Source: a virus
Direction: 5' to 3' (one strand)
DNA length: 33,780 nucleotides
IMG/VR virus record: IMGVR_UViG_3300046000_003914
Coordinates: 1-33,780 of that record
Made by a program: the position numbers and the translations under genes
The notes under the pieces: generated by a model
What the model was told of the DNA's origin: nothing
What the model saw: the letters and a program-made list of their open reading frames with translations, nothing else
Databases searched by the model: none
In this document: positions 1,462 through 9,340 of the stretch, in pieces
Layout of the letters: each line of letters begins with the position of its first letter
Numbering within the stretch: the first letter of the stretch is position 1

Positions 1462-3584
1462 TGGCTAAGTACGAATCAGGTGATGACTACGCGATTGACT
1501 TCGACAGCCTTCAGTCAGTGCTCAATCTTATGTCGTCGGCGCAAGAGGCTGATCACGACAACCGAGAGAAAGCGCGTGAGGCCCATCTGTTTTGCGATAA
1601 GCGAGACGGTCAGTGGGAACCTTACTGGTGGACGAACAATGTCAATAAGCCTCGATACACATTTGATATGGTGAATCCCATAGTCGATCAGGTGGCTGCT
1701 GAGATCGAGCAGGCCGACTTCGACATCAAGGTGTCACCGATGTCAGGCCCAGCGTCTAAAGAGACTGCAATGGTCATTGATGGCTTGGTGCGTAACATTG
1801 AGGCTATCAGCAGGGCAAAGGACATCTACATCAACGCAGGCCGGGGAATGGCAACTGCCGGATACGATGGCTGGATGGTGTCGCACAAGTACGCTGATCC
1901 GCAATCCTTTGATCAAGACCTGGTAATTGAGCCTGTTGCCAATTTCATTGATCGAGTCTGGTTTGATCCTGCTTCCTACCTTCAGGACAAGTCCGATGCT
2001 CAATATGCTTTCCTGCTGCACCCAATGTCAGTGCAGGAGTACGTCAAGCGATACCCTGAAGGCTCGCAAACGTCCGTGTCGATTGATCGAGAGGGTGACG
2101 CATACTATGACAAGGGTCAGGTAATCGTTGTAGGGCAGCTATTCTACGTCGAGCAGGAAGCCTGTGACCTGGTGCTGATGAGCAACGGGGCTGTGTACAC
2201 TGTCGATGACGACTTCAAGAAGGTGCGAGACGAGCTGACGGCATTGGGCATTGAAGAAGTCAGGACTCGCAAGGCTTACAAGACTAAAGTGTGTTCACGC
2301 TTCTTTGACCAGACTGACTGGCTGGAAGACAAAGAAGACACAATCTTCCACCGGATTCCAATTGTTCCTGTCTACGGCAACTTCAAGATTGTCGAGAATA
2401 AGACAATCTATTGGGGCGTGGTCGAGAAGCTGCTAGATCCGCAGCGTGTTCTCAATTACTCCTTGTCACGCGAGATCGAGGAAGGCGCACTGGCTCCGAG
2501 GGCTAAGTACTGGATGACTCTCACCCAGGCAGCAGGGCATGAGGACGCACTGGCTACGCTGAACACTAACTCAGATCCGGTCCAGTTCTACAATGTGGAC
2601 CCTGAGATGCCAGGTGCTCCGATGCAGCAGGGTGGCGCACAGGTTAACCCAGGGCTTCGCACAATCTCCGAGTCAATGCGTCAGATCATAGGCCAGACTG
2701 CTGGGATGTTCGCTGCATCTATGGGAGACAATCCTGGCCTTCAGTCAGGCGTGGCAATTGAAAGTCTTCAGGCGAAGGGCGACAACGGCACCATCAAGTA
2801 TTTCAGGGCACTGGAAGCGGCTATTGCGGCCACTGGTGACATCTTGGTCAAGGCTATTCCCAAGGTCTACGATGCCCAGCGCACAGTCAGATTACTGTAC
2901 GAGGATGGCAGCACCGAGATGCAGGTGCTCAATGAGCCGATCATTGACCAGCAGACGGGCGAGATTGTCACCCTGAACGACCTGACCAAGGGTCAATACT
3001 CTGTGGCTTGTCGAGCAGGCCCATCGTTCCGCAACCGTCAGCAGGAGACCATCGAGACCATCATTGAGATTGCTAAGGTTGACCCGTCAATCATTGGCAT
3101 GGCTGGCGACATCCTGCTTAATGCAATTCCTACCAGTGCAGCAACTCAGATTGGCGAGCGCAAGCGTCTACAGATGATGTCGCAGGGCTTGATACCTCAG
3201 ACCCAGATGACCGAAGAAGAAAAGGCTCAATTAGCTCAAAGCGCACAAGGCCAAGAGCAGCAGCAAGACCCGGCAATGGTATTGGCCCAAGCTGAGATGG
3301 CGAAGGCTCAAGCAGAGCAAATGAGGGCACAGGTCGAGGTTCAGAGGCTCCAGTTGGATACAGCCAAGATTCAGTTGGAAGCACAGAAGGTTCAGGTGCA
3401 GATGCAAGCAGATCAGGCTCAACAGCAACTGGATGCGTTCAACGCACAGACTCAGCGCATGAATACCCAGATCAAGGCTCAACAGGCTGGAGCCAGTATT
3501 GAGAAGGACGCAGTCGATATTCAAGGCAAGCAGATTGACAACCAGATGAAGATTGCCAGCGCATTGAATCCATTCAGAGGATAA
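1461..3584 (+). CDS. Portal protein (P22 gp1-like)
   Basis: This is the dodecameric ring at the DNA entry vertex, docking the terminase during packaging and later the tail hub. The 707 residues match the long P22-type portal (725 residues) and not the shorter lambda or T7 types. The N-terminal part has the family's aromatic region (QWEPYWWTN). The last 120 residues are very rich in Gln and Ala with heptad-like spacing, consistent with the helical barrel of P22 portals. An ATG three codons upstream (1452) is possible, but 1461 overlaps the terminase stop and has AAAGGA eight bases upstream. It is followed by two small genes and then the ART-like protein. Confidence 0.93.
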   Translation: MAKYESGDDYAIDFDSLQSVLNLMSSAQEADHDNREKAREAHLFCDKRDGQWEPYWWTNNVNKPRYTFDMVNPIVDQVAAEIEQADFDIKVSPMSGPASKETAMVIDGLVRNIEAISRAKDIYINAGRGMATAGYDGWMVSHKYADPQSFDQDLVIEPVANFIDRVWFDPASYLQDKSDAQYAFLLHPMSVQEYVKRYPEGSQTSVSIDREGDAYYDKGQVIVVGQLFYVEQEACDLVLMSNGAVYTVDDDFKKVRDELTALGIEEVRTRKAYKTKVCSRFFDQTDWLEDKEDTIFHRIPIVPVYGNFKIVENKTIYWGVVEKLLDPQRVLNYSLSREIEEGALAPRAKYWMTLTQAAGHEDALATLNTNSDPVQFYNVDPEMPGAPMQQGGAQVNPGLRTISESMRQIIGQTAGMFAASMGDNPGLQSGVAIESLQAKGDNGTIKYFRALEAAIAATGDILVKAIPKVYDAQRTVRLLYEDGSTEMQVLNEPIIDQQTGEIVTLNDLTKGQYSVACRAGPSFRNRQQETIETIIEIAKVDPSIIGMAGDILLNAIPTSAATQIGERKRLQMMSQGLIPQTQMTEEEKAQLAQSAQGQEQQQDPAMVLAQAEMAKAQAEQMRAQVEVQRLQLDTAKIQLEAQKVQVQMQADQAQQQLDAFNAQTQRMNTQIKAQQAGASIEKDAVDIQGKQIDNQMKIASALNPFRG

Positions 3585-3594
3585 ATACGGGACA

Positions 3595-3618
3595 GCCTCT
3601 CACCCGATAAGGAGAGGC
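3595..3618 (+). other. Stem-loop after portal gene
   Basis: A perfect 7-bp stem GCCTCTC/GAGAGGC encloses a 10-base loop, ten bases after the portal stop. No T-run follows, so it is not a classical intrinsic terminator. It may stabilise the mRNA end or mark a processing site. Confidence 0.5.
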
Positions 3619-3638
3619 ACGATCTGAGGTAAAACCAG

Positions 3639-3815
3639 ATGAAACATGAAATTGAAATTGCAATCGAGGTTCTGGCAATCAAGGGCCAAAAAGCAACAGA
3701 CTCCGGTGATGCACTAAGATATACGCAAGCAGCACTAAACCTTGCACACACTTTGGCAACATGGACAGAAACAGAGATGCGCCAAAAAGATCACATAACT
3801 AAGGGCCAGATATGA
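3639..3815 (+). CDS. Small hypothetical protein (58 aa)
   Basis: The product is unrecognised. It runs from MKHEIEIAIEVLAI to KDHITKGQI and looks all-helical, with a 'RYTQAALNLAHTLA' segment resembling the repeating helices of small phage proteins that often sit beside structural genes. The start is supported by GAGGT nine bases upstream, and the stop overlaps the next ATG (ATGA), so the two genes are probably translationally coupled. It has no membrane segment or cysteines. It lies between portal and scaffold and is presumably late-expressed, which does not prove it is structural. Confidence 0.75.
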   Translation: MKHEIEIAIEVLAIKGQKATDSGDALRYTQAALNLAHTLATWTETEMRQKDHITKGQI

Positions 3816-4201
3816 ATCCACTAGAAGGCATGACCATCATCATCCAGCAGGAAGAGCCGTTCACTGCGAAGATCAACCGAGAGAACCGGGCCAACGTCAT
3901 CGAGAACTGGAAGTTCGGCCCTGAAGAGACCACCAGCGACAACACTGACTACTATCGCATGATGGCTAGGGCTTGGAGCGTAAAGCCAGTGGAGGCCCGC
4001 AGGCAGATGTGTGGCAACTGCGAATACTTCAACAATTCACCTGAGAAGCTGGAGATGATGGAAGTAGTACCAGAGGATGACTATGACGCTGATGGCGGTG
4101 GTCGAGGCTACTGCGAGAAGTTTGAGTTCGTCTGCCATAACCTGCGAGTGTGTCAGGCTTGGGAAGAAAGAGAAGAAGAAGACGAATACGGGGAGGATTG
4201 A
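3812..4201 (+). CDS. Cys-rich hypothetical protein, possible metal site
   Basis: The 129-residue protein has an unstructured acidic C-terminus and a central set of cysteines: MCGNCEYF near residues 66-73, then GYCEKF, FVCHN and RVCQAW. The spacing C-x2-C ... C-x6-C-x5-C could bind zinc or an iron-sulfur cluster. Similar Cys-containing proteins occur near the portal in other podophages, but I cannot name a family. The start overlaps the preceding stop, and its own stop lies two bases before the ATG of the ART-like gene. It is probably part of the head module. Function unknown. Confidence 0.8.
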   Translation: MNPLEGMTIIIQQEEPFTAKINRENRANVIENWKFGPEETTSDNTDYYRMMARAWSVKPVEARRQMCGNCEYFNNSPEKLEMMEVVPEDDYDADGGGRGYCEKFEFVCHNLRVCQAWEEREEEDEYGED

Positions 4202-4203
4202 TC

Positions 4204-6183
4204 ATGGCACAACCACAGTCAGCACTCAGAGCATTAGACCAAGCCTACCTCATGGGCATAGGCCAAGGGCCAGCACCTGCGCGTGTGCCGAGGACGAGGG
4301 GCCAGAGTGCTGCTGATATGCTGGGCGCTGCGGCAATTGGCACGACACCTATTCCGATTGTTGGCGACATCACTGGATTGGCTGCTGATGCTGCCATGTA
4401 CGCTGCCTACCCTGAAGAAAGGACAATGGGCAACTACGCTATGTCTGCTGCTGGCGTTCTGCCATTTGTGCCTGGAGTGTCGGCGCTTAGGGCTTTGAAA
4501 GATGCTCCCAATACAGAAAATGCTCTTTCTGGGTACGATACAAGTTTCCCGATTACCCATGAATCGTCAAGCCCAGAGTTTGACGGCGTAATACGGAACA
4601 AAACTCCGTATTCTGTCTTCGATGGAATTTTTGGGCTTGGGGGAGTAAAAGGTAATGCGCTTGGATCAGGGCAAGGAGCTAATTATACTTATTTGCCAAG
4701 GACTGGAAAGGTTGCTGGTAGTGGCGATGTGGATTTGGAATACGGAAAATCTGTTGAATTTTTGAAGAAACAATTTCCTAAAGCGTCAGATGATCAAATT
4801 GACTCTCTTTATCGGGCAACGGCAGAAGATGCTGGCGACTTCTCTAGTTTTGAGGACAGCACTTTTGATGGATTGCTGTATGGGGATGCTGGAGAAAGAT
4901 CGTGGATGGCGCAAAATTTAAGAGGAAAGATGGCTGTAGATCAAGGCTTTGACGCAGTAGCAATGTCTGATGAAAATGGCACAAGCTACTTCATTCCTTA
5001 CGGCAGCAAAGCTAAAAACATTGGCACAAACTTTGATTGGGACTCTTATAACAGAGCAACCGCCCCTTCACCCAGCCCGCTACAAGGCACTCTGGATATG
5101 TCCCAAGCTGCTAGGATGCAGAGGGCGGCAGAGCAGGGGTACAGCGGCCCTTATTATCATGGGTCACAAAGGATTGATAGGGTTATAGAAAGCGGCAGCA
5201 TAAACCCCAAAAGGGCAACAAGCGGGCCTATGCCGTATTTCACAGACAGCCCAGAGCTTGCGTCTAGCTATGCGGCAGGAAAGACAGATACCAGCTTACC
5301 GGAAGGAGGGTATCAAGATTTCTTCAAGGTATCTCCGAAAGACATTGGGGCTGGCGGTAGAAGCCCGATAACCGTAGAAAGAAGCTGGAATTTTTTAGAT
5401 GACAAAACAAAAAATGAAATAAGAGACAGAGCGACAAGAATTGGTTACGAAAACTATGACGAAGCCAGCGGCCCTTTAACGCTTCATTCTAGCGGCGTCG
5501 ATGCCTCTCCGTCTAAGTCTCAGTATGAATACTTGATGAGATCGTCAGCAAAAGGAAACCCATTAACGGCGCTTCGGGAGCTTTGGGTAGACAGCGGCAA
5601 TCTGTTTAACGAAGAAGAAAAGCTGGCAGAAATATATAAATTAGCAGGATTCCCAGCGCAGATAGATCAGTCTGCGGCACCTTGGATTGAAGCGAAAGGG
5701 GTGCTTCCTGCCATGCTTAGGATGGATAACCCGCTAAATACATCAAATTTCGATGAACTAAAGACTTCCGTGATACCGACACTAAAGGAGGCGTTTAAGA
5801 ATTCAAGGGCAAAAACCAAGCCTTACGGCGCAGATATGTGGGACAAGACCGTTAGGTTTACTCCGCTTGAATGGGTGAGGGAGCTTGAGAAAGACGTTTT
5901 AAATAATGCAAATAGTTACGTATGGACATCAATCCCTGACAAGGTGACGGAGCAACTTAAAAGAATAGGGTATGACGGAATTATTGACGCAGCAGGAAAA
6001 GGCGGCGGGGTAAGCTACTCTGTAGCAATACCGTTCCGTCCAGACCAGGTTCGATCAATTAACGCAGCCTTCGACCCAGCCAAGCGTGGCTCTGGCAACC
6101 TAATGGCAGGCGCAGCAGGCGCAACTGTCGGACTCTCAGCCCTACGCAACATCCAGCGAGACGAAGAGCGCCAACCCGATTAG
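4204..6183 (+). CDS. Virion-module protein with ADP-ribosyltransferase-like segments
   Basis: From the ATG at 4204 the product has 659 residues. Residues 1-95 are Ala/Gly-rich and hydrophobic (IPIVGDITGLAADAAMYAA), like the ends of ejected virion proteins. Residues about 118-270 and 305-635 each resemble the ART fold of phage polyvalent proteins. The second has YYHGSQ (about 317-322), then YFTDSPELASSYA, and ends GYDGIID ... PDQVRSINAAFDP. The first ends SYFIPYGSKAKNIG. The first segment has a candidate catalytic Glu (SDENGTSY). At the equivalent place the second has GGGVSYSV with no Glu, so it may be inactive. The central 1.5 kb is more A/T-rich in codon choice than the flanks, suggesting a later insertion into an older virion protein. 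The ART assignment is by motif and needs structural confirmation. Confidence 0.75.
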   Translation: MAQPQSALRALDQAYLMGIGQGPAPARVPRTRGQSAADMLGAAAIGTTPIPIVGDITGLAADAAMYAAYPEERTMGNYAMSAAGVLPFVPGVSALRALKDAPNTENALSGYDTSFPITHESSSPEFDGVIRNKTPYSVFDGIFGLGGVKGNALGSGQGANYTYLPRTGKVAGSGDVDLEYGKSVEFLKKQFPKASDDQIDSLYRATAEDAGDFSSFEDSTFDGLLYGDAGERSWMAQNLRGKMAVDQGFDAVAMSDENGTSYFIPYGSKAKNIGTNFDWDSYNRATAPSPSPLQGTLDMSQAARMQRAAEQGYSGPYYHGSQRIDRVIESGSINPKRATSGPMPYFTDSPELASSYAAGKTDTSLPEGGYQDFFKVSPKDIGAGGRSPITVERSWNFLDDKTKNEIRDRATRIGYENYDEASGPLTLHSSGVDASPSKSQYEYLMRSSAKGNPLTALRELWVDSGNLFNEEEKLAEIYKLAGFPAQIDQSAAPWIEAKGVLPAMLRMDNPLNTSNFDELKTSVIPTLKEAFKNSRAKTKPYGADMWDKTVRFTPLEWVRELEKDVLNNANSYVWTSIPDKVTEQLKRIGYDGIIDAAGKGGGVSYSVAIPFRPDQVRSINAAFDPAKRGSGNLMAGAAGATVGLSALRNIQRDEERQPD

Positions 6184-6278
6184 CGAATTTCGCCACTTGT
6201 TGTAGATTCTCGCCAATACTGCTACATTGTACACAGGCCACCAGACCATTCTGGGCATCTCACCTATAAGGGCAAATT

Positions 6279-7115
6279 ATGACGCAACCAGCAGACTATG
6301 ATTTTGATGATACTCCCGACGACGAAAATCAGGAGCCAATCGAGACGCAGGAGGCTGAAGATCAGCCAGACGTTGAACCAGATGTCGAGGATGATTCCGA
6401 ATCGTCAGAGGATAGTGGGGAGACTCACGATAAACCGATCTTCACCGAGGCGCAGCAAAAGGTCTTCGATGACGCAATAGGAAAGAAAGTATTCAAGCTC
6501 CGTGAAAAAGAGCGCGAAGCCGAGCAACTCCGAAAGCGGCTAGAGGAATTTGAGCAGCCACAAACTCGGTCGCGGCCACAAGTGCCAGCTCTGCCTGACC
6601 CGTTCGCTTTGTCCGATGAGGAATACAAGCGACAGATCATGCACAGAGAGCAGGCTCTTATATCCGCTTCTGCCTATGATACCCAGATGCAAATGCTGAA
6701 TCATCAGCAGGCGCGACTGGCTCAGGAGGCAGAGCAAAAGCAGCAGGAGATTCTGGTTGAGAAGGTTCAAAGCTACGCGCAGAGGGCTAAAACCCTTGGC
6801 GTCAAGGCAGAGGAGCTTCAAGCAGCAGGCTCGATTGTAGGTCAGTTTGGAATTGATGATTCGCTGGTGCAGTACATCCTTGAGGATGATCACGGCCCGC
6901 TAATCACCAAGTATCTGTCCCAGAACGTCACTGAATTGGACGCACTGAGACATCTACACCCAACGATGGCCGCGGTCAGGATTGCTACGTTGATCAAGTC
7001 AAAAGCTGTTGCCCTGAAACCCAAATATACTAACGCTCCTGATCCAGTTCGACGACCCATGCCATCGAGCGCACAGGTCAAACCGAAAGGGCCGAAGGGA
7101 GCAACATTTGAATAG
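6279..7115 (+). CDS. Scaffolding protein
   Basis: The 278-residue protein has a strongly acidic, disordered first 60 residues, then a charged coiled coil (KLREKEREAEQLRKRLEE near 70-90), Gln-rich helices and a basic C-terminus. P22-type scaffolds (gp8, 303 residues) also bind coat through a short basic C-terminal element. The position directly before the coat gene is the conserved scaffold position. AAGGGC lies shortly upstream of the ATG, and the 95-base gap from the ART-like gene has no clear terminator. Expected to direct procapsid assembly and then leave the capsid. Confidence 0.85.
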   Translation: MTQPADYDFDDTPDDENQEPIETQEAEDQPDVEPDVEDDSESSEDSGETHDKPIFTEAQQKVFDDAIGKKVFKLREKEREAEQLRKRLEEFEQPQTRSRPQVPALPDPFALSDEEYKRQIMHREQALISASAYDTQMQMLNHQQARLAQEAEQKQQEILVEKVQSYAQRAKTLGVKAEELQAAGSIVGQFGIDDSLVQYILEDDHGPLITKYLSQNVTELDALRHLHPTMAAVRIATLIKSKAVALKPKYTNAPDPVRRPMPSSAQVKPKGPKGATFE

Positions 7116-7125
7116 GTGATTTAAC

Positions 7126-8397
7126 ATGGCTAACAATCTCAGTAGTAACGTAACCCGCAAGGTTGCGCGTGTCTTCTTGGATGCTTTCGAGAATTCTCGC
7201 GTTATCACCAAGACAGTTGACACGCAGCTTCTGTCTGACAAGTTCAACCCTTCATCCGGCAGCACTGTAGACTTCAAGCGTCCGCACGACTACAACACGA
7301 TCCGCACCTCCGGCGGTGACATCTCCTCCTCGACCAAGTCTTCCATCATTGCTGGTAAGGCGACTGGTACGGTCCAGAATTACTTCACTGCTGCGACAGA
7401 TTGGGGCAACCTGGAAGAAGCGATTCAGCTCGATCAGCTTGAGGATATTCTGGCTCCGATGGCTCGACGTATCGTGACCGACTTGGAACTGGACTTCGCA
7501 TCCTTCATGCTGAAGAATTCTTCCCTGCGTTATGGTACTCACGGCACAGCAGTAGATGCTTGGTCTGATGTTGCTGGCGCTGGTGCGTTCATGGACTCAA
7601 TCGGTATCAACCCGGCGAGCGAGCGTTACTACCTGATGAACCCGTTCACGGTAGCAACACTGGCAAGTGCTCAGTCAGGACTGAACTCTGTTGATAGCCT
7701 GATTCGTACTGCATGGGAAAATGCCCAGATCAGCACCAACTTCGGCGGTCTTCGTGCTCTGAGCGCAACTACTCTGGCGAGCTTTACTTCAAGTTCTGGC
7801 GCAGACCGTGCCGGTACTTTGAGCGCGGCACCTGATGCGACATACGTTACTGCAAAGGACACAATGACCCAGTCTCTGGCTGTCACTGCGTTCCAAGCTA
7901 ACATGGTCGTGAAGGCAGGCGAGCTTGTAACGATTGCAAGCGTCAACCGCTTGAACCAGTCAACCCGTCAGGCGATGGTTAGTGCTACCGGCACCAACGT
8001 AGCATGGACCGGTGTTGTGACTGCTGACGTGACTCTTGGCGCGTCTGGCGAAGGCACTCTGGTAGTGGCTGGCCCAGCGATCTACGAAGCAACTGGTCAG
8101 TACAACACTGTAACGGCTGCACCCGCTAACGGCGCTGTGGTTACGATTGTGTCTGCTACTGCGACTCTGTACCAGCCTAACCTGTTCTACACAAAGCAGG
8201 CGTTCGGTCTCGGCACAGTGAAGCTGCCTAAGCTGTACTCAACTGACACTGTTGCGACTACCTCTGACGGTATGTCCATCCGTATCAGTAAGTTCTCTGA
8301 CGGTAACGCTAACACCCAAAGCATCCGCTTCGACTTGCTGCCTGCTTACGCTTGCTTCAACCCAAGCATGAGCGGACAGGGATTTGGAGTCGCGTGA
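7126..8397 (+). CDS. Major capsid protein (P22 gp5-like)
   Basis: The 423 residues are close to P22 coat (430). The N-terminus (MANNLSSNVTRKVARVFLDAF) and the PHDYNTIRTSGGD segment fit the HK97-fold coat of the P22 gp5 family. A Thr/Val/Ala-rich beta region at about residues 220-345 occupies the place of the P22 inserted I-domain. The C-terminus returns to the main fold (QPNLFYTKQAFGLGTVKLPK). AGGTGA precedes the ATG, and the gene follows the scaffold by ten bases. Codon use is unusually regular (GCT, CTG, CGT), as expected for a very highly expressed gene. Confidence 0.95.
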   Translation: MANNLSSNVTRKVARVFLDAFENSRVITKTVDTQLLSDKFNPSSGSTVDFKRPHDYNTIRTSGGDISSSTKSSIIAGKATGTVQNYFTAATDWGNLEEAIQLDQLEDILAPMARRIVTDLELDFASFMLKNSSLRYGTHGTAVDAWSDVAGAGAFMDSIGINPASERYYLMNPFTVATLASAQSGLNSVDSLIRTAWENAQISTNFGGLRALSATTLASFTSSSGADRAGTLSAAPDATYVTAKDTMTQSLAVTAFQANMVVKAGELVTIASVNRLNQSTRQAMVSATGTNVAWTGVVTADVTLGASGEGTLVVAGPAIYEATGQYNTVTAAPANGAVVTIVSATATLYQPNLFYTKQAFGLGTVKLPKLYSTDTVATTSDGMSIRISKFSDGNANTQSIRFDLLPAYACFNPSMSGQGFGVA

Positions 8398-8508: not shown

Positions 8509-8537
8509 TTAATCGGGAATCTTTGGGAGAAGATTTT

Positions 8538-9053
8538 ATGCCTGTGCATATTGATTCAATACTTGTCAAAAAGTGCTTTGATTACAACCCTGAAACTGGC
8601 GAGCTGACTAGAGTCGCAACGCTAGAGACAAGGGGGCGAAAGCCAAAAGGAAAGCGCGTCCATGTAGCACATGGCGGCAAAAAATATTACAAGCATGGCG
8701 TTTTTAAGTTAAACGTCTATGAGCACAGAATTATCTGGATATGGATGACAGGCGAGCAGCCTGACACAATAGACCATATCGACGGGGATGGCCTTAACAA
8801 CAAGTGGTCGAACCTCAGAAGCGTGCAGCACTCTATAAACTTAAAGAATCAAAAGAAGCACGTCACAAATACATCTGGCTATGCCGGGGTGTCATACAGA
8901 AAAGATTGCGGGAAGTGGCGAGCGAGGCTGATGGTTGATGGAAAGTCTATTAACTTTGGCGCATTCCTAACCCCTGAAGCTGCACATAATGCTAGGCTTC
9001 AAGCAGTCAATGTTTATGGCTTTAACACTAATCACGGCAGGAGACTTACTTGA
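8538..9053 (+). CDS. Free-standing HNH homing endonuclease with AP2 DNA-binding domain
   Basis: The 171-residue protein has an HNH_3-type core (HRIIWIWMTG, then DHIDGDGLNNKWSNLR at about residues 76-95) and a C-terminal AP2-like domain (GVSYRKDCGKWRARL ... INFGAF). Such proteins cut DNA at a conserved site and spread by homing. The start is set by GGGAGA seven bases before ATG 8538. It sits alone between coat and the next head gene and overlaps the following start (TGATG). Codon use is more A/T-rich than in the capsid gene, in line with recent arrival. No intron is apparent because the flanking genes are complete. Confidence 0.93.
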   Translation: MPVHIDSILVKKCFDYNPETGELTRVATLETRGRKPKGKRVHVAHGGKKYYKHGVFKLNVYEHRIIWIWMTGEQPDTIDHIDGDGLNNKWSNLRSVQHSINLKNQKKHVTNTSGYAGVSYRKDCGKWRARLMVDGKSINFGAFLTPEAAHNARLQAVNVYGFNTNHGRRLT

Positions 9054-9340
9054 TGGCTAAGAAAGATCCGCGATTAGATCGGCTAGGATTAGAAGGCTTC
9101 AATAAGCCTAAGAAAACCCCTAATCATCCGACAAAATCTCATGTGGTAGTCGCTAAAGTAGGCGACGAGATTAAGACAATCCGCTTTGGTCAACAGGGTG
9201 TTACCGGCTCTCCTCCAACAAAGGGCGAGTCTGAAGCAGACCGCAAGCGCAGAGCATCATTCATGGCGCGTCATAAAGAAAACATTAACAAGGGCAAAAT
9301 GTCAGCGGCATTTTGGTCGTCAAAGGTGAAATGGACATGA
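9053..9340 (+). CDS. Conserved phage protein of unknown function (95 aa)
   Basis: A basic 95-residue protein with the recognisable pattern IKTIRFGQQGV, then a KRRASFMARHKENI helix and a KMSAAFWSSKVKW end, known from many unrelated phages as a conserved domain of unknown function. ATG 9053 overlaps the endonuclease stop and has AGGAG nine bases upstream; TTG 9050 is a poorer choice. It lies in the head completion region. The stop overlaps the next gene's ATG (ATGA). Its function is not known. Confidence 0.85.
   Translation: MAKKDPRLDRLGLEGFNKPKKTPNHPTKSHVVVAKVGDEIKTIRFGQQGVTGSPPTKGESEADRKRRASFMARHKENINKGKMSAAFWSSKVKWT

What the first reader, a model, noticed from the sequence alone, without database searches (positions are those of the whole stretch)
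4500..6050. Tandem ADP-ribosyltransferase-like segments inserted in a virion-module protein
The protein begins and ends like a short Ala/Gly-rich phage protein, but the centre holds two ART-like segments with distinct codon use. The pairing of motifs (His/Tyr motif in one, candidate Glu in the other) suggests the copies may have diverged, one active and one structural. Its position among head genes suggests delivery with DNA into the host, as T4 Alt does. I know of no described P22-like phage with this arrangement.
Basis: partly seen in the sequence, partly recalled or inferred. Interest (0 to 1): 0.75.

Follow-up and report, generated by a model that had tools for sequence, protein, structure and literature searches.

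The report
Head-gene payload with anti-CRISPR-like enzyme
Between its portal and scaffold genes this uncultured P22-like phage carries a swappable "payload" protein in which an enzyme domain of the AcrIF11 anti-CRISPR family is joined to a second, different ADP-ribosylating enzyme, suggesting that the virus may carry ready-made anti-defence enzymes inside its particle.

Summary
Gene 4204-6183 (659 aa) lies in a P22-type head operon between portal (plus a small ORF) and scaffold. Residues 108-290 are an AcrIF11-family ADP-ribosyltransferase (ART): NCBIfam AcrIF11 E 7e-11 (43.3 bits, just under the 50-bit cut-off), PDB AcrIF11 hits, AlphaFold model matching 6kyf, catalytic Asp-Glu loop kept. Residues 314-620 are a divergent ART-PolyVal with H319/Y345/D595 kept. 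Both are under purifying selection and A+T-rich against their host gene.

Among 53 distinct relatives of this portal-scaffold gap, a shared N-terminal "chassis", a SALR tetrapeptide and often a shared C-tail enclose at least 17 cargo clusters (many ARTs, GNAT, ParB-like, DUF7178, LPD23, SAM-lyase-like, unknowns). Some gaps are empty. AcrIF11-family domains that pass NCBI's cut-off occupy the same slot in L031 and in a very distant phage, L079.

Most likely role: a small polyvalent effector packaged in the head and injected to modify host or defence proteins. Virion delivery and an anti-CRISPR target are inferred, not shown. I found no earlier description of an AcrIF11-type enzyme in a virion-gene slot.

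The parts
4204..6183 (+). payload gene, 659 aa (P0001), ATG start, SD GGGGAGG at 4190-4196 overlapping the stop (4199-4201) of the upstream ORF
   Evidence: no promoter or terminator above shuffled expectation in 3500-7200
4204..4512 (+). N-terminal chassis, type I (residues 1-103), hydrophobic/Gly-Ala-rich, shared by proteins with unrelated centres
   Evidence: 4000-4494 is 86-87% nt identical to L013/L018/L020
4525..5073 (+). AcrIF11-family ADP-ribosyltransferase domain (residues 108-290)
   Evidence: NCBIfam NF052490 E 6.6e-11, 43.3 bits, cut-off 50; PDB 6kyf/8dwq hits; AF2 model, Foldseek 6kyf prob 1.00, VIA Z 7.2; 92% nt to L008 polyvalent gene
4558..4560 (+). H119, probable motif-I His of segment 1 (alignment-dependent; P116 is the alternative)
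4969..4974 (+). D256-E257, equivalent of catalytic D115/E116 of AcrIF11Pae1 and D146/E147 of AcrIF11Pae2
   Evidence: alignment; residue roles from PMC12421852
5072..5140 (+). linker 'SPLQGTLDMSQAARMQRAAEQG', 96% nt identical at module joints in L012/L013/L018, also flanking the AcrIF11-like module in L008
5143..6063 (+). ART-PolyVal-type ADP-ribosyltransferase domain (residues 314-620); H319, Y345, D595 = H-Y-D motif; WTSIPDK 574-580 invariant
   Evidence: Pfam PF18760 E 6e-5, below cut-off, 13 of 37 relatives hit, best 1.9e-11; conservation in 54 sequences; AF2 pLDDT 82.6, PARP/cholix-type folds Z 6-7
6052..6183 (+). conserved C-terminal tail 'AAFDPAKRGSGNLMAGAAGATVGLSALRNIQRDEERQPD'
   Evidence: 90-93% nt to L012/L013/L014/L018 over 6050-6500
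4219..4230 (+). SALR motif 1 (residues 6-9); further copies at 4480-4491 and 6136-6147
   Evidence: 89 SALR in 53 payload proteins against 0.97 expected by composition, 47 in first 45 and 27 in last 45 residues
1452..3584 (+). P22-type portal protein (upstream neighbour)
   Evidence: PF16510 E 4e-134
3812..4201 (+). conserved Cys-rich ORF of 129 aa, upstream of the slot; present also where the payload is absent
6279..7115 (+). head scaffolding protein (downstream neighbour)
   Evidence: phrog_8865 E 8e-21
7126..8397 (+). P22-type coat protein
   Evidence: PF11651 E 3e-67

Best explanation
The gene is the current occupant of a cassette-exchange slot between the portal and scaffold genes of a clade of aquatic P22-like phages. 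A conserved N-terminal chassis and C-tail, both bearing SALR, are proposed to tether the product to the assembling head. The exchangeable centre is a two-enzyme cargo: an AcrIF11-family mono-ADP-ribosyltransferase and a divergent ART-PolyVal. It is made late with the head proteins, packaged in small copy number, and injected with the DNA. The ART-PolyVal domain then ADP-ribosylates a host target, and the AcrIF11-like domain ADP-ribosylates a defence component, possibly a CRISPR surveillance complex, before any phage gene is expressed. Cargo is swapped through recombination at the shared flanks and linker, probably by the phage's RecT/NinB/NinG system. Shown here: domain identity, catalytic-motif retention, purifying selection, cassette swapping and slot conservation. 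Inferred: packaging, injection, enzymatic activity, targets and the recombination agent.
For: AcrIF11 family: NCBIfam equivalog model E 6.6e-11 in the window; L031 (56.4 bits) and L079 (70.5 bits) in the same slot pass the 50-bit cut-off. PDB sequence hits 6kyf and 8dwq, the two solved AcrIF11 structures. AF2 model best match 6kyf, Z 7.2; no other row exceeds 3.7, and one of the two at 3.7 is 8dwq, the other AcrIF11. D256-E257 kept. ART-PolyVal: H-Y-D and about 60 other columns invariant or nearly so (H-Y-D definition in PMC5512222); PARP/cholix-like folds. Purifying selection. Slot: 84 loci / 53 distinct gaps with the payload between portal and scaffold in most; 17 or more cargo clusters; Pfam cargo tally; empty slots L196, L217, L222, L223, L227 and cargo-less chassis L186. 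Sharp nt mosaic borders and 96% linker identity. SALR enrichment. Distant phage L079 has portal, AcrIF11-like fusion, scaffold and coat in the same order. RecT, NinB, NinG in window.
Against: No virion proteomics and no activity data. The window's AcrIF11 score is 7 bits under the curated cut-off. The third His of AcrIF11 is absent and the first is alignment-dependent. In the tree the window domain sits on a long branch (3.39) apart from validated AcrIF11, so its target may differ. The AF2 model of segment 1 is weak over its first 54 residues. Cultured P22-like relatives lack the payload. Host, and hence any type I-F CRISPR, is unknown.
Confidence: 0.6

Rival explanations
1. The same payload protein is virion-delivered, but the AcrIF11-like domain does not act on CRISPR. 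Like most phage ARTs it modifies another host target (RNA polymerase, translation factors, another defence system), and only the fold and catalytic loop are shared with AcrIF11.
For: Long branch separating the window domain from validated AcrIF11 and replaced or extended helical region, which PMC12421852 proposes carries target specificity; other ARTs in the slot have varied sequences.
Against: Slot relatives L031 and L079 pass the AcrIF11 equivalog cut-off; catalytic loop conserved.
Confidence: 0.45
2. Polymorphic-toxin role: the slot encodes toxins (as in MuF polymorphic toxins) that kill or inhibit rival bacteria or co-infecting phages rather than aid the incoming phage.
For: Conserved delivery part with swapped enzymatic centres is the polymorphic-toxin layout (PMC5576092, PMC3482391); ART is a common toxin fold.
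Against: No immunity gene travels with the cargo: the flanking 129-aa ORF and the scaffold gene are constant and persist in empty slots. No prophage copies of the chassis found in 84,980 bacterial and archaeal genomes. Cargo vocabulary (GNAT, ParB-like, LPD23, DUF7178, SAM-lyase-like, AcrIF11) is that of polyvalent anti-defence proteins.
Confidence: 0.15
3. Not packaged: the gene is a 'moron' that happens to lie in the head operon, and its product acts in the infected cell late in infection (for example modifying host proteins or excluding superinfecting phages).
For: No direct evidence of packaging; the slot is dispensable (empty in several relatives).
Against: Position between portal and scaffold is conserved in very distant phages (L079); no promoter above chance; conserved SALR-bearing ends independent of cargo suggest a shared destination; literature argues that head-gene ARTs are likely packaged (PMC9503650).
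Confidence: 0.25
4. One ART domain is a degenerate, structural leftover.
For: Third His of AcrIF11 missing and first His uncertain in segment 1.
Against: dN/dS 0.24 for segment 1; DE-x-GTS loop kept; segment 2 keeps the invariant columns of its family.
Confidence: 0.15

Closest known systems
AcrIF11 (anti-CRISPR ADP-ribosyltransferase; PDB 6kyf and 8dwq; NCBIfam NF052490)
   Same: Segment 1: same family by profile, fold and catalytic Asp-Glu loop.
   Different: Known AcrIF11 are small stand-alone proteins expressed in the cell; here the domain is an internal module of a 659-aa protein encoded among head genes, divergent, with unknown target.
Polyvalent proteins of phages and conjugative elements, with ART-PolyVal (PF18760) (Iyer et al. 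2017, PMC5512222)
   Same: Multiple effector domains in one polypeptide near head genes; ART-PolyVal with H-Y-D; shared vocabulary (GNAT, ParB-like, LPD23); the AcrIF11-like module itself occurs at 92% nt in a 2203-aa polyvalent protein (L008).
   Different: Much smaller (one or two effectors); fixed chassis and tail in a fixed portal-scaffold slot; I found no AcrIF11-type ART in the passages of that paper that I searched.
T4 Alt
   Same: ART encoded with virion genes and proposed to be injected to modify host proteins.
   Different: Alt belongs to the R-S-E clade; here H-Y-D and H-F-D/E types. No homology shown.
MuF polymorphic toxins of temperate phages
   Same: Head-associated N-terminal part with interchangeable C-terminal enzymes including ARTs.
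   Different: No MuF domain, no immunity gene, cargo internal between conserved ends, no prophage copies found.
Injected anti-restriction proteins P1 DarA/DarB and T4 IpI
   Same: Concept of pre-formed anti-defence proteins delivered with DNA.
   Different: Different proteins and targets; delivery here is inferred.

Membership tests
AcrIF11 family (NF052490) | Score above curated cut-off (50 bits) | tested here: inconclusive
   Window 43.3 bits, E 6.6e-11, just below; same-slot relatives L031 56.4 and L079 70.5 pass
AcrIF11 family (NF052490) | AcrIF11 fold | tested here: met
   Foldseek 6kyf prob 1.00, E 1.2e-3; VIA Z 7.2, next rows 3.7 (one is 8dwq, also AcrIF11); first 54 residues of the model poor
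AcrIF11 family (NF052490) | Catalytic acidic pair (D115/E116; D146/E147) | tested here: met
   D256-E257 in SDENGTS aligns
AcrIF11 family (NF052490) | Motif-I His and aromatic of motif II | tested here: inconclusive
   F143 aligned; H119 aligned by L-INS-i but P116 by the align_proteins run
AcrIF11 family (NF052490) | ADP-ribosylation of Cas8f/Csy1 and CRISPR inhibition | not testable with these tools
   needs an assay
ART-PolyVal (PF18760, Tox-ART-HYD2 clade) | H (strand 1), Y (strand 2), D (strand 5) | tested here: met
   H319 and D595 invariant in 53 relatives and lying in modelled strands; Y345 (F or Y in family) next to strand 2; definition
ART-PolyVal (PF18760, Tox-ART-HYD2 clade) | Score above Pfam gathering cut-off 31.2 bits | tested here: inconclusive
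   Window 24.2-25.4 bits; 13 of 37 members of its subfamily match, best E 1.9e-11
Polyvalent protein | Two or more effector domains in one polypeptide | tested here: met
   AcrIF11-like plus ART-PolyVal
Polyvalent protein | Encoded with portal/terminase/head genes | tested here: met
Polyvalent protein | Packaged and transferred with the DNA | not testable with these tools
   needs virion proteomics
T4 Alt (R-S-E ART) | R-S-E active site | tested here: not met
   The conserved motif residues are H-Y-D and H-F-DE instead
MuF polymorphic toxin | N-terminal MuF domain | tested here: not met
   No MuF match at E up to 1
MuF polymorphic toxin | Adjacent immunity gene | tested here: not met
   Neighbouring genes constant regardless of cargo and present in empty slots

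The most novel reading that the evidence does not exclude
A virion-delivered anti-CRISPR enzyme: P22-like phages carry a pre-made AcrIF11-type ADP-ribosyltransferase in the head, inside a cassette-swappable payload, and inject it so that CRISPR complexes are inactivated catalytically before any phage gene is transcribed.
Probability: 0.2. Interest if true: 0.88.

Novelty: new variant of a known kind. Interest (0 to 1): 0.7.

Why it matters
Known anti-CRISPRs are described as made after DNA entry, which leaves phages exposed and can require co-infection (my own knowledge). A catalytic Acr packaged in the particle would remove that delay. The slot also gives a list of candidate anti-defence domains, at least 17 cargo clusters and several with no known family, delivered by a common chassis; the SALR-bearing ends are a testable packaging signal.

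Tried and rejected
Diverged-duplicate model: rejected, the two segments belong to different ART families. V603 as a lost catalytic Glu of segment 2: rejected, the column is variable. Column-146 Glu (Ala in window) as the lost catalytic residue of segment 1: set aside, since published mutagenesis places catalysis at the following Asp-Glu pair. AF2 of chassis plus ART-A together: alignment A3 mixed chassis with the N-termini of stand-alone ARTs, so only domains were modelled. Host search: chassis absent from GTDB genomes, portal only in three loci from two MAGs, so the host is unresolved. A pre-toxin (PT-TG-like) reading of the chassis was considered; no Pfam support at E up to 1. Foldseek alone gave no significant PDB match for segment 2; PARP/cholix similarity came from the second look, where Z 6-7 is modest. 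The ART-B match to the cyanophage A4 pre-ejectosome (9k3a_B, Z 8.0) could not be followed in the literature.

Full report
WHAT IS THERE. The window is a 33,780-base virus record with a P22-type head module: TerL, portal (PF16510, E 4e-134), a 129-aa Cys-rich ORF, the gene in question, scaffold, coat, then connector and ejection genes, and RecT, NinB, NinG and small terminase. The gene runs 4204-6183 (659 aa). Its Shine-Dalgarno GGGGAGG overlaps the stop of the 129-aa ORF, and promoter-like sites do not exceed shuffled expectation, so it is most simply read as part of the head operon.

TWO DIFFERENT ART DOMAINS. Residues 108-290: the window domain matches NCBIfam's AcrIF11 equivalog model at E 6.6e-11, 43.3 bits against a cut-off of 50. 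Searched alone against PDB sequences, its only two good matches are 6kyf (E 7e-4) and 8dwq (E 1.2e-3); a profile of 27 relatives gives 1.1e-21 and 6e-10. Both entries are AcrIF11 proteins (PMC12421852). The AlphaFold2 model (mean pLDDT 60.7; first 54 residues poor) has 6kyf as best match (Foldseek prob 1.00; VIA Z 7.2 with the next rows at 3.7, one of them 8dwq). The acidic pair shown by mutagenesis to matter in AcrIF11 (D115 in Pae1; D146/E147 in Pae2) corresponds to D256-E257. F143 aligns with the family's aromatic; H119 is the likely motif-I His but depends on the alignment. Residues 314-620: a divergent ART-PolyVal (window 24-25 bits, below the cut-off; 13 of 37 subfamily members match, best E 1.9e-11). 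In 54 sequences the H-Y-D set that defines the clade (PMC5512222) is kept as H319, Y345 (Y/F) and D595, along with WTSIPDK; the model (pLDDT 82.6) resembles PARP, tankyrase and cholix catalytic domains at Z 6-7. So the segments are two ART families, not copies, and V603 is not a lost catalytic residue. Both domains show purifying selection (dN/dS 0.24 and 0.08; the second rests on near-saturated dS).

A CASSETTE SLOT. At the DNA level the window matches L013/L018 at 86-87% up to 4494, has an extra piece 4495-5071, matches again at 96% in the linker (5072-5140), differs to about 6052, then matches at 91-92% into the scaffold gene. The extra piece matches at 92% a 2203-aa polyvalent gene in L008, where copies of the linker flank it. 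The ART-PolyVal part matches L001 at 71% nt, attached there to another chassis. The cassettes have GC 0.44 and 0.46 against 0.57 and 0.60 for the ends; no equally long window in the other genes is as low. Fetching portal relatives gave 84 loci with both portal and scaffold, 53 distinct. Most hold a 264-1099-aa payload in the gap, a few none, and L186 keeps chassis plus tail without cargo. Cargo falls into 17 single-linkage clusters, an underestimate because chimeras join clusters: ART-PolyVal (23 of 53 proteins), GNAT, DUF7178, LPD23, SAM-lyase-like, DUF3990, ParB-like, and families without any match. Ten slots from phages with portals of at least 93% identity carry nearly all different cargo. 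SALR occurs 89 times in these proteins against about 1 expected, 47 times in the first 45 and 27 times in the last 45 residues, and in none of the window's other head and tail proteins examined. Common descent of the chassis inflates the count, but four chassis types and both ends carry it. No immunity gene accompanies the cargo.

ACRIF11-TYPE DOMAINS IN THE SLOT. Besides the window, L031 (56.4 bits) and L208 carry chassis, AcrIF11-like domain, linker, another ART and tail; L040 carries GNAT, AcrIF11-like domain and ART. L079, from a phage whose portal is only 25% identical, has TerL, portal, a fusion of a hydrophobic N-terminal part with an AcrIF11-like domain (70.5 bits), scaffold and coat (scaffold and coat there are read from position and sequence, not from a profile search). 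About 30 further relatives in IMG/VR are small stand-alone genes. In the tree the window/L008 pair is on a long branch and validated 6kyf groups with the stand-alone genes, so shared chemistry is likely but the target is open. Closest cultured P22-like phages have an empty slot or unrelated small genes.

MECHANISM. Late expression with head proteins, recruitment into the procapsid through the chassis and SALR ends, injection with DNA, and ADP-ribosylation of host or defence proteins by two enzymes is the reading that fits position, architecture, cargo vocabulary and the published view that head-gene ARTs are packaged (PMC9503650; PMC5512222). Shown: domain identity, motif retention, selection, cassette exchange, slot conservation. 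Inferred: packaging, injection, activity, targets, and recombination via RecT/NinB/NinG. I put virion delivery at about 0.6 and a CRISPR target for segment 1 at about 0.2-0.3.

NOVELTY. Literature searches of the open-access library found no report of an AcrIF11-type ART in a virion-gene or polyvalent protein; most subscription papers were not searchable. Separately the kinds are known (AcrIF11, polyvalent proteins, injected ARTs); their combination in an exchange slot between portal and scaffold is a new variant.

Noticed in passing
window 4219-4230, 4480-4491, 6136-6147 and L-loci payload proteins: SALR tetrapeptide at both ends of most slot proteins (89 against about 1 expected), absent from the window's other head and tail proteins examined; candidate packaging tag.
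   Followed up: partly
L188:4601-5947, L218, L230, L238, L246, L011, L014, L017, L022, L023: A 10-member cargo cluster with motifs like 'SDRxAAG..I.D..GGQDYMF' or 'RGGTFWG'; representatives L017 and L188 had no significant Pfam or PHROG match; candidate unknown anti-defence domain.
   Followed up: partly
L011:7537-8424 and L017:4163-4999: Slot proteins with a ParB-like cargo (L011 by PHROG match; L017 by the 'ILDGHNRASIA' sequence only) following a first payload gene: two payload genes in tandem.
   Followed up: partly
L246:4793-8089: 1099-aa slot protein with an S-adenosylmethionine-lyase-like domain (Pfam 29.3 bits, cut-off 28); SAM lyases are known anti-restriction effectors (own knowledge).
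   Followed up: no
window 9050-9340: 96-aa ORF whose 'TPNHPTKS...SAAFWSSKVKW' sequence (weak DUF6321 match) recurs as the N-terminal part of the 1030-aa L005 polyvalent protein that also carries the ART-PolyVal subfamily.
   Followed up: partly
window 3812-4201: 129-aa Cys-rich ORF constant upstream of the slot, present even when the payload is missing; function unknown.
   Followed up: no
model of window 5071-6180: The ART-PolyVal model also matches residues 1418-1611 of a cyanophage A4 pre-ejectosome protein (9k3a_B, Z 8.0), a possible ART fold inside a podovirus ejection protein.
   Followed up: partly
window 8523-9053: HNH endonuclease gene directly after the coat gene.
   Followed up: no
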